Assembly (NCBI RefSeq): GCF_000242915.1
Contig: NZ_AFRZ01000001.1
Span: 2,480,001 to 2,544,000, forward strand
From: Sulfurimonas gotlandica GD1
GTDB taxonomy: Bacteria; Campylobacterota; Campylobacteria; Campylobacterales; Sulfurimonadaceae
Direction of reading: 5' to 3'
DNA length: 64,000 nt
Shown here: positions 60,984 to 63,030 of the stretch, one piece after another
How the letters are laid out: each line of letters starts with the position of its first letter
Position numbering within the stretch: position 1 is the stretch's first letter
Notes under the pieces: model-generated
What the model saw: only the letters and a program-made list of their open reading frames with translations
What the model was told of the DNA's origin: nothing
Databases searched by the model: none
Made by a program: the position numbers and the translations under genes

Positions 60984-60989
60984 TATAAT
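60984..60989 (+). promoter_or_regulatory. -10 box of the chemoreceptor gene
   Basis: TATAAT at 60984-60989 predicts a transcript start near 60996, with the operator-like repeat at 61004-61023 just downstream and AGGAG before the ATG at 61051. Confidence 0.5.
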
Positions 60990-61003
60990 TTCTTAAATAC
61001 TCT

Positions 61004-61023
61004 AGTAAATCTATAGAATTACT
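61004..61023. promoter_or_regulatory. candidate Rrf2 operator in the chemoreceptor leader
   Basis: AGTAAATC-TATA-GAATTACT, with seven of eight arm positions pairing, just downstream of the TATAAT box. A repressor bound here would block initiation or elongation. Confidence 0.55.
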
Positions 61024-61050
61024 GTTGTTATAAAAATATCAGGAGCTTAC

Positions 61051-63030
61051 ATGTTTAATTCTATTGCAAAAAAAGTTACGTATATACAGGTTGTTGTAAT
61101 TGTTGTCTCAATGGTTGCCTTTATAGGCTATATAAATGACTATTTAAACAGTTATATAAATAAAGAAACTCATCTAAAATTAGATTCGAGTGTTGAGCGA
61201 ATGGTTCAAACTATGGATACTTATAATGGAGCATTGGAAGAGAGTGCAACTAAGTTATATAATGTATTTAAAAGTAACTTCAGTGATTTTTCTATTACTC
61301 CAAATGAAAGAGTGGATGTGTATGGTGTCTCTACTCCAGTCTTAGTAAGTGATGGTGCAGTTATAAATAATAACTTTGCAAAAATTGAAGAATTTACAAA
61401 ACTTACAGGTGCAGTAGCTACAGTTTTTGCTAAAGATGGGGATGATTTTGTGCGTGTATCTACATCTTTGTTAAAGATAGATGGAAAAAGAGCAATGGGT
61501 ACATACCTTGGAGGATCAAAAAGTCCGGCATTTAAACCCATAATGGACAAACAAACATACATAGGTAATGCAAGACTATTTGGAAAAGATTATGTAACTG
61601 TCTACTCTCCAATATTGAGTATAAGTGGAGATGTGATTGGTATTTTATTTATAGGTTACGATTTTACAGATGGACTCAAATCTCTCTCTCAAAAGATCAA
61701 CCAAATGAAGATAGGTGAAAATGGTCATTTCTATGCGATAAACTTAAAAACAAAAAAATATGATATTCATAATACATCAATAGGTACTGACGCAAACTCA
61801 GATGTGGCAAAACAGATAATAGAAAAAAAAGATGGCTATATCGCTTATAATGAAGATGAGTTAAGTAAAGCTGTAAGATTTAAAGCTTTTACAAAATGGA
61901 ACTGGATAGTTGTAGGAGAAGTTAACTTAGCAGATTTTGAAAAAACAAATACAGAGCTAAGAGAGAACTTGATTATAGCTGCTACTATTATGACTTTTAT
62001 AATTACGCTTATCACGTGGTTAGTAGTAAAAAGAGTAGTCTCTAGTCCTCTAAATAATCTTATATTTTGTACAAAAAACCTTTCAAGTGGAGATGGTGAC
62101 CTTACCAGAAAACTAGATATTAAGGGACGTGATGAAGTTGCAGAAGCTAGTAAAGGGATAAATGATTTTATAGAAAAAGTAAGAATTCTTATTGCAGATG
62201 CTAAGAATCTATCAACTGAAAACTCATCAATATCTCATCAACTCTCAACAACATCAAATGAGGTTGGTAAACTATTAGAAGAATCAACAACAGTAGTAAA
62301 GAATACAACCGAGCAGGCAGTTACTATCAAAGATGAGATGGGGAATAGTATAGAAGAGGCAAAAATATCTAAAGATGATTTGGAAAAAGCGAATGGATTT
62401 TTAACACAAGCAAATCAAGCAATTTTAGAACTTACAAAAGATATAAAAATAAGTGCCTCAGTTGAAATAGAATTAGCTCATAGTATAAAACAACTAAGCG
62501 AAGATGCTAAACAGGTAAAAGATGTACTTTTAGTTATAGGTGATATAGCCGATCAAACAAACTTACTCGCATTAAATGCAGCAATTGAAGCGGCTCGTGC
62601 AGGTGAACATGGCCGTGGATTTGCTGTTGTTGCTGATGAAGTTAGAAAACTAGCTGAGAGAACACAAAAAAGCTTAATAGAAATAAATGCCACTATTGGT
62701 GTAATTGTTCAATCTATTATGGATTCCAGTGAGCAGATGACACAAAATTCTATGAAAGTAGAAAAATTGAGTGAAACCGCTATAGGAGTTGAAAATAAGA
62801 TAAATGATCTTTCAGAGGTGATGGGTGAAGCGATTATAATGGCAGATAAAACAGTAGAAAGTTATATTCAAACAGGAAAAGACACTGAGAATATAATTAA
62901 CAGCATTAGTAAAATAAATGAGCTCTCTGGCAAAAATGCAAGAAGCATTGAAGAGATTGCAAGTGCAGCCGAACATATGAATGCAATGACTGAAACACTT
63001 AACACTAAACTATCTGAATTTAAAACTTAA
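61051..63030 (+). CDS. methyl-accepting chemotaxis protein with Cache_3-Cache_2 sensor
   Basis: The 659-residue receptor has an N-terminal membrane helix (about 12-32), a periplasmic Cache_3/Cache_2 fusion (about 38-300, with GTYLGGSKSPAFKPIM and IGENGHFYAINLKTK), a second helix (about 306-327), HAMP, and a signalling hairpin with ADQTNLLALNAAIEAARAGE. Ligands of this sensor class include small acids and amino acids. A candidate Rrf2 operator in its leader would couple its expression to sulfur status. Confidence 0.92.
   Translation: MFNSIAKKVTYIQVVVIVVSMVAFIGYINDYLNSYINKETHLKLDSSVERMVQTMDTYNGALEESATKLYNVFKSNFSDFSITPNERVDVYGVSTPVLVSDGAVINNNFAKIEEFTKLTGAVATVFAKDGDDFVRVSTSLLKIDGKRAMGTYLGGSKSPAFKPIMDKQTYIGNARLFGKDYVTVYSPILSISGDVIGILFIGYDFTDGLKSLSQKINQMKIGENGHFYAINLKTKKYDIHNTSIGTDANSDVAKQIIEKKDGYIAYNEDELSKAVRFKAFTKWNWIVVGEVNLADFEKTNTELRENLIIAATIMTFIITLITWLVVKRVVSSPLNNLIFCTKNLSSGDGDLTRKLDIKGRDEVAEASKGINDFIEKVRILIADAKNLSTENSSISHQLSTTSNEVGKLLEESTTVVKNTTEQAVTIKDEMGNSIEEAKISKDDLEKANGFLTQANQAILELTKDIKISASVEIELAHSIKQLSEDAKQVKDVLLVIGDIADQTNLLALNAAIEAARAGEHGRGFAVVADEVRKLAERTQKSLIEINATIGVIVQSIMDSSEQMTQNSMKVEKLSETAIGVENKINDLSEVMGEAIIMADKTVESYIQTGKDTENIINSISKINELSGKNARSIEEIASAAEHMNAMTETLNTKLSEFKT

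What the first reader, a model, noticed from the sequence alone, without database searches (positions are those of the whole stretch)
60984..63030. A chemoreceptor apparently placed under the sulfur-assimilation regulator
The operator-like repeat lies between the -10 box and start codon of a Cache_3-Cache_2 receptor gene that is divergent from the cys operon. It implies that cells short of sulfur change their taxis. The ligand could be a sulfur compound.
Basis: inference. Interest (0 to 1): 0.5.

Follow-up and report, generated by a model that had tools for sequence, protein, structure and literature searches.

The report
Formate chemoreceptor under a cysteine repressor
In a Sulfurimonas bacterium, a swimming sensor that probably detects formate carries the same DNA switch as the genes that make cysteine, so cells short of usable sulfur probably turn on a search for formate.

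Summary
A 27-nt box (ATACYCTAGTAA-N10-TTACT) lies at 60997-61023, between a TATAAT -10 (60984-60989) and the ATG (61051) of a Cache_3-Cache_2 chemoreceptor gene. In the whole 2.95-Mb genome only three sites lie within one mismatch: this one, the promoter of the divergent cysHDN-sir operon, and the promoter of rrf2-cysK. A matrix trained without receptor sites scores it above all 58 million simulated positions. At cys and rrf2 the box abuts the -35; at the receptor it starts near +1, which fits repression. The regulator is CymR-like: 26 of 26 orthologues read end in [YF]-x-Ile, the kind of tail that docks into CysK, while this genome's CysE lacks it. The sulfur-ligand guess is not supported: the distal sensor module best matches two formate-bound receptors and keeps the R/T/T formate residues in 12 of 12 relatives. 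The gene was imported from Sulfurospirillaceae, where it has no box and no cys neighbours in the loci read. Against: in the only other species with this arrangement (a MAG) the receptor box is degraded and the gene frameshifted. No binding, expression or ligand data exist.

The parts
60997..61023 (+). Regulator box in the receptor leader, ATACTCTAGTAAATCTATAGAATTACT
   Evidence: Third of only three genome sites with 0-1 mismatch; 30.2 bits with receptor sites left out of training
60984..60989 (+). Likely -10 (TATAAT, extended TGn) of the receptor gene
   Evidence: Read directly; aligned TATATT in G025; not tested by experiment, and not listed by the scan
61051..63030 (+). Cache_3-Cache_2 methyl-accepting chemotaxis protein, 659 aa; predicted formate receptor
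   Evidence: Pfam; structure model and PDB matches; R135, T138, T151
60811..60837 (-). Regulator box of the cys operon, ATACCCTAGTAAACTTATAGACTTACT, ending on the first base of the -35
   Evidence: 0 mismatches to the pattern; -35 TTGACA, 17 nt, TACAAT
55832..55858 (-). Regulator box of rrf2-cysK, ATTCCCTAGTAAATCAATAGATTTACT, ending on the first base of the -35
   Evidence: 1 mismatch; promoter read
60514..60738 (-). DUF2061 membrane protein, first gene of the cys operon
   Evidence: PF09834, E 9.8e-25
59797..60504 (-). cysH, adenylylsulfate/phosphoadenylylsulfate reductase
   Evidence: NCBIfam TIGR02055 and NF002537 above cut-off
58876..59787 (-). cysD
   Evidence: NCBIfam above cut-off
57462..58874 (-). 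cysN
   Evidence: NCBIfam above cut-off
55864..57453 (-). Sulfite/nitrite reductase-like protein (sir)
   Evidence: Pfam NIR_SIR; below all NCBIfam cut-offs
55359..55772 (-). Rrf2-family regulator, CymR-like, C-terminus YHI
   Evidence: PF02082; 98 bits to CymR model, cut-off 195; tail
54410..55330 (-). cysK, cysteine synthase A
   Evidence: TIGR01139 above cut-off

Best explanation
A CymR-like Rrf2 repressor, probably working as a complex with CysK, binds three boxes in this genome: at cys, at its own rrf2-cysK promoter, and in the receptor leader. When reduced sulfur and cysteine are plentiful it sits on the first bases of the receptor transcript and keeps the gene low. When usable sulfur runs out, O-acetylserine builds up, the complex lets go, and the cell makes both its sulfate-assimilation enzymes and this receptor. 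The receptor, imported from Sulfurospirillaceae, most likely senses formate with its distal Cache module and steers swimming toward it. Shown by computation: the box, its genome-wide rarity, its geometry, the C-terminal Ile tail, the formate-site residues, the import. Inferred: binding, direction of control, CysK/O-acetylserine as signal, ligand, behaviour.
For: Genome-wide box search and leave-out matrix. The same box, in the same place relative to the -35, at cys and/or rrf2 in G025, G002 and G052. Box after the -10 at the receptor, which fits repression. Regulator: CymR model is its second-best NCBIfam match, [YF]-x-Ile tail in 26 of 26 orthologues read against terminal Ile in 3 of 22 other Rrf2 proteins, next to cysK, CysE without terminal Ile. 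Ligand: two formate-bound domains as best matches by profile and fold, R135/T138/T151 with PacF spacing in 12 of 12 rows, formate-dehydrogenase-like genes in the genome.
Against: In G025, the only other species with this arrangement, the receptor box has lost its right half (3 mismatches; 21.6 bits, about 0.3 expected per genome by chance) and the gene is frameshifted near codon 369 in the MAG. The box and cys neighbourhood are absent from the Sulfurospirillaceae orthologues read. The regulator scores below the CymR cut-off. No expression, binding or ligand data. Formate dehydrogenase matches are below the TIGR01553 cut-off.
Confidence: 0.62

Rival explanations
1. The box at 60997 mainly serves the cys operon: as a distal operator for looping (the two boxes are inverted copies), or as the box of a second, leftward cys promoter with TATAAT on the minus strand. 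The receptor is a bystander.
For: 28-nt inverted copies, 86% complementary, 157 nt between the arms. Read by eye on the minus strand, a TATAAT stands 23 nt after TTTACT, one base further than at cys.
Against: The minus-strand -35 position reads TAGAGT, a poor hexamer, and the minus-strand -10 is TAAGAT in G025, while the plus-strand -10 is better kept (TATATT). The other rrf2/cys boxes of four genomes work without a second distal box as far as seen. Looping by Rrf2 proteins is not known to me (recalled).
Confidence: 0.15
2. The box is a recent or fading accident: the receptor landed beside cys on foreign DNA, kept or gained a box-like leader, and the control has no selected role.
For: Degraded box and frameshifted receptor in G025; recent import with an IS256-type transposase remnant just downstream; only 2 of 135 genus genomes carry a close receptor.
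Against: In the window genome the box is as good as the cys and rrf2 boxes (30.2 bits against 26.8-32.3 for those of the two species left out in turn) and the receptor ORF is intact.
Confidence: 0.15
3. As first proposed: the receptor senses a sulfur compound (sulfate, thiosulfate, taurine, cysteine) and is induced so that starved cells find sulfur.
For: Position beside cys and the shared box; nutrient-controlled receptors for the same nutrient exist, e.g. CtpL and CtpH for phosphate (passages of PMC9864684). A taurine-bound Cache receptor (5avf) is a more distant fold match (Z 13.5).
Against: Best profile and fold matches are formate-bound and the formate residues are invariant in 12 of 12 rows; the same receptor sits away from cys genes in Sulfurospirillaceae.
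Confidence: 0.08

Closest known systems
CymR with CysK (Bacillus subtilis, Staphylococcus aureus)
   Same: Rrf2-family regulator of cysteine genes; C-terminal Ile motif for CysK (passages of PMC12895370 and PMC4961446; PMC2869319); here rrf2 sits beside cysK
   Different: Score half of the CymR equivalog cut-off; different phylum; box and a chemoreceptor target not reported in the passages read
PacF (Pectobacterium atrosepticum) and McpF (Pseudomonas syringae pv. tabaci), Cache_3-Cache_2 formate receptors
   Same: Domain type, and R/T/T residues with the same spacing as PacF (passages of PMC12501870)
   Different: No sulfur-linked control mentioned in the passages read; ligand of the window protein untested
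Formate-bound sensor domains 8py0 and 8py1
   Same: Distal module: Z 19.2 and 18.2, 27% and 35% identity
   Different: Single-module domains; the window protein has a second, membrane-proximal Cache module
CtpL/CtpH phosphate receptors of Pseudomonas aeruginosa
   Same: Chemoreceptor genes turned down by a nutrient (Pi) (passages of PMC9864684)
   Different: There the attractant is the missing nutrient itself; here signal (cysteine/sulfur) and predicted attractant (formate) differ
Tlp1 of Campylobacter jejuni
   Same: Formate taxis in the same phylum; formate as electron donor (passages of PMC10294657)
   Different: Other Cache type (dCache); no link to sulfur regulation in the passages read

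Membership tests
CymR (NCBIfam NF047409 equivalog) | Score at or above the curated cut-off of 195 bits | tested here: not met
   98.4 bits; so described as CymR-like, not as CymR
CymR-like, CysK-coupled Rrf2 regulator | Rrf2 domain | tested here: met
   PF02082, 97.1 bits, cut-off 30
CymR-like, CysK-coupled Rrf2 regulator | C-terminal isoleucine tail | tested here: met
   Ends TYHI; 26 of 26 orthologues read end in [YF]-x-Ile; control 3 of 22
CymR-like, CysK-coupled Rrf2 regulator | Boxes at cysteine-synthesis genes | tested here: met
   cys and rrf2-cysK promoters
CymR-like, CysK-coupled Rrf2 regulator | Physical complex with CysK that responds to O-acetylserine | not testable with these tools
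   Needs purified proteins
Cache_3-Cache_2 chemoreceptor (PF17201) | Domain score above the gathering cut-off, with HAMP and MCP signalling domains | tested here: met
   250.6 bits, cut-off 27.7; HAMP 26.7 against 25; MCPsignal 118.5 against 34.6
PacF-type formate receptor | R, T and T at the PacF spacing (R142, T145, T158) | tested here: met
   R135, T138, T151; 12 of 12 rows of alignment A3
PacF-type formate receptor | Binds formate | not testable with these tools
   Needs calorimetry or a capillary assay

The most novel reading that the evidence does not exclude
In a sulfur-oxidising chemolithotroph the cysteine repressor doubles as a gauge of sulfide, its electron donor: when sulfide is gone, O-acetylserine/CysK/Rrf2 switches on taxis to formate, another electron donor. 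A biosynthetic regulator would have been rewired, by horizontal gain of a receptor plus a new operator, to steer the choice of energy source by swimming.
Probability: 0.3. Interest if true: 0.75.

Novelty: new variant of a known kind. Interest (0 to 1): 0.55.

Why it matters
Chemoreceptors under nutrient control are known where the scarce nutrient is also the attractant, as for phosphate. Here the shortage signal (cysteine/sulfur) and the predicted attractant (formate) differ, which would tie the state of sulfur assimilation to the choice of electron donor. It also points to a CysK-coupled cysteine switch across Campylobacterota: the listings of two searches showed no paper that I could see describing one, and a 2026 paper on C. 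jejuni cysM notes the lack of a cysB orthologue and leaves the mechanism open (passages of PMC12844120).

Tried and rejected
Sulfur compound as ligand: set aside. Further regulon members: none within 2 mismatches of the 27-nt box; of the two weaker 20-nt sites, 2858223 lies inside an ORF and 1151322 overlaps the start of a response-regulator-like ORF read on the other strand, taken as chance but not excluded. Box in orthologues: best 6-9 mismatches within 300 nt upstream in 26 loci, L120-L145, i.e. 25 of Sulfurospirillaceae and one of family f11. Arrangement in other Sulfurimonas: 132 of 135 genus genomes have no match to the receptor's first 320 residues; of the 3 matches one, G111, is distant at 35%. 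The first scan of genome contigs with the single protein found no relative; the second, with alignment A1, found 15 loci. Sigma-54 or sigma-28 promoter for the receptor: looked for by eye only, nothing convincing. A TAGTA-N8-TACTA upstream of the G221 orthologue has the wrong spacing and overlaps its likely -10; taken as chance. Tree (FastTree, N-terminal 320 residues, 33 sequences): the two Sulfurimonas receptors fall in one group with Sulfurospirillaceae genus g52 (0.998); the order within that group is unresolved (0.065 and 0.187). In one search, L062 and L064 dropped out because tblastn found no match at 1e-5; one further strong Rrf2 hit (G003:C46) had no locus and was not read. One search found only 9 of 20 paralogues; one search read all 20 from the coordinates. 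The Pfam scan gave no match for the 43-aa remnant; tblastn against plasmids did. Searches for papers on sulfur-controlled chemoreceptors listed nothing that I recognised as such; only listings were seen.

Full report
The place. The window is part of a 2.95-Mb, one-contig genome. I place it in Sulfurimonas because its same-genus relative G025 carries the receptor on a contig of 13,468 bases, the length and match (75% over residues 1-320) of a record titled Sulfurimonas sp. isolate OB8. A leftward operon holds DUF2061, cysH, cysD, cysN and a sulfite/nitrite-reductase-like gene; rrf2, cysK, a SufS-like gene, a Cys/Met-metabolism PLP enzyme (metY-like) and a tRNA thiolation-type gene follow on the same strand. 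The receptor reads rightward from the other side of a 312-nt gap.

The box. The 20-nt near-palindrome of the finding is real (61004-61023). It belongs to a longer box, ATACYCTAGTAA-N10-TTACT. A whole-genome scan finds three sites with 0-1 mismatch: cys (0), rrf2 (1), receptor (1); none with 2; the 8 sites with 3 are at control level. To lessen circularity I trained a matrix on six cys and rrf2 sites of four genomes, without receptor sites: the receptor site scores 30.2 bits. The cys and rrf2 sites of the two Sulfurimonas genomes with the receptor, each left out in turn, score 26.8-32.3, and the rrf2 sites of G002 and G052 23.6 and 23.1. None of 58.4 million simulated positions reaches 30.2. 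The pattern was chosen after seeing all the sites, so one search is the fairer test.

Geometry. At cys and rrf2 in both of these genomes, and at rrf2 of G002 (same genus) and G052 (another family of the order), the box ends on the first base of a TTGACA-like -35, followed by 17 nt and a -10 (read). Related TTACTTGAC promoters stand before metY in G055, G017 and G030. At the receptor the box begins 7 nt after TATAAT, about on the first transcribed bases, and ends 27 nt before the ATG. A protein bound there can hardly activate this promoter; repression is the natural reading (inference).

The regulator. It scores 98 bits against NCBIfam's CymR model, cut-off 195, so I do not file it as CymR. But 26 of 26 CysK-type orthologues read across the order end in [YF]-x-Ile, against a terminal Ile in 3 of 22 other Rrf2 proteins (1 of 2, 2 of 20). 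A C-terminal Ile is the anchor by which CysE binds CysK; CdiA, EGL-9 and CymR of B. subtilis are named as non-CysE partners with such a motif; and loss of the Ile in P. aeruginosa CysE is likened to B. subtilis (passages of PMC12895370). This genome's one CysE above the family cut-off also lacks it, ending IKAMKS. I infer that the protein works like CymR: a cysteine gauge coupled to CysK.

The receptor. A model of residues 35-305 has mean pLDDT 91. Its distal module matches best two chemoreceptor domains solved with formate (8py0 Z 19.2 over 152 residues, rmsd 2.7; 8py1 Z 18.2 over 136, rmsd 2.2), which also lead the sequence-profile search and the Foldseek list. The Cache_3-Cache_2 receptor PacF binds formate at its distal module, and changes at R142, T145 and T158 affect this; McpF of P. 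syringae pv. tabaci, of the same domain type, mediates formate taxis (passages of PMC12501870). The window receptor has R135, T138 and T151, the same spacing, invariant in 12 of 12 aligned relatives. The genome has two formate-dehydrogenase-like ORFs of 944 and 947 codons with one in-frame TGA each, as selenocysteine enzymes would have, though below the TIGR01553 cut-off. This is the only protein of the genome with a full-length PF17201 match. Another Cache_3-Cache_2 receptor, Shewanella MCP_0387, still has no known ligand after tests that included amino acids and small peptides (passages of PMC12016497), so domain type alone does not settle the ligand; the residue match is the stronger argument.

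Origin. Three of 135 genus genomes match the receptor N-terminus: this one, G025, and a distant one at 35%. In a sample of the order 66 of 298 genomes match, the closest in family f20; two f20 places coincide with records named Sulfurospirillum cavolei and Sulfurospirillum diekertiae (G276 and G266). The window and G025 receptors group with f20 genus g52 (0.998). In the f20 loci read in detail the gene lies between ahpC-like and ferredoxin genes (G055, G405), beside the ferredoxin (G221, contig end beyond), or elsewhere (G354). No cys-type gene of the window was found in the f20 loci, most of which hold only 1.5 kb of flank, and no box lies within 300 nt upstream. A 43-aa IS256-type transposase remnant lies just downstream in the window. 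So the gene was most likely imported, came to lie beside cys, and gained the box there (inference).

What speaks against. In G025 the arrangement is the same and the cys and rrf2 boxes are good, but the receptor box keeps only its left half (ATACTCTAGTAA, inside a conserved promoter block); it scores 21.6 bits, about 0.3 such sites being expected per genome by chance, and in the pattern search it stands among other 3-mismatch sites. The G025 receptor also has a frameshift near codon 369 in a metagenome-assembled contig, so decay and assembly error are both possible. Conservation thus neither proves nor disproves function; the case rests on the quality and rarity of the box in the window genome.

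Why formate and sulfur might be joined. In C. jejuni formate is an electron donor (passages of PMC10294657). Sulfurimonas species oxidise reduced sulfur compounds (recalled). Lack of sulfide would then mean both lack of easy sulfur for cysteine and lack of an electron donor, and a cysteine gauge could serve to start a search for another donor. This step is conjecture.

Verdict. Observation confirmed; placement under the Rrf2 regulator likely; sulfur ligand unlikely; formate likely. Known kinds of parts in a new combination.

Noticed in passing
window 63534-64000; rest in L096 up to 3710: A flagellin gene is interrupted by one in-frame TGA (63744-63746) after residue 70; the same frame then stays open for the rest of the flagellin. 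A nonsense mutation, a sequencing error or recoding are all possible.
   Followed up: partly
window 63114-63245: A 43-aa ORF just downstream of the receptor matches the N-terminus of IS256-family transposases on plasmids (52-62% identity in the best rows): a remnant of a mobile element.
   Followed up: yes
window 60957-60974: A second inverted repeat, GGTAAAAAATATCTTACC, stands upstream of the receptor -10, with one base changed in G025; a similar GGTAAACAAATATTTAAC lies at the same distance (-94/-95) before the gene in three Sulfurospirillaceae loci, L125, L127 and L143. Possibly the site of another regulator that came with the gene.
   Followed up: partly
window 60827-60860; L098 about 1811-1860: Upstream of the cys box there is a second, weaker half-box in tandem (TACTAGGGTAT and TAGTAGGGTAT, 23 nt apart); in G025 the second copy is better. 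Two regulator dimers may bind there.
   Followed up: no
window 60514-60738: DUF2061, a small membrane protein of unknown function, is the first gene of the sulfate-assimilation operon here and directly precedes cysH in G025, G005, G021 and G044 as well.
   Followed up: no
L098 about position 470: The G025 receptor gene has a frameshift near codon 369.
   Followed up: yes
L105, L110, L111, upstream of rrf2: In G005, G021 and G024 the rrf2 promoter carries a different, shorter element (ATNACNASTAAATNACTTTACA-like) at the -35, so the box seems to have drifted along with the regulator.
   Followed up: no
genome positions 1723286 and 115144 (L222, L225): Two formate-dehydrogenase-like ORFs with one in-frame TGA each, likely selenoproteins.
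   Followed up: no
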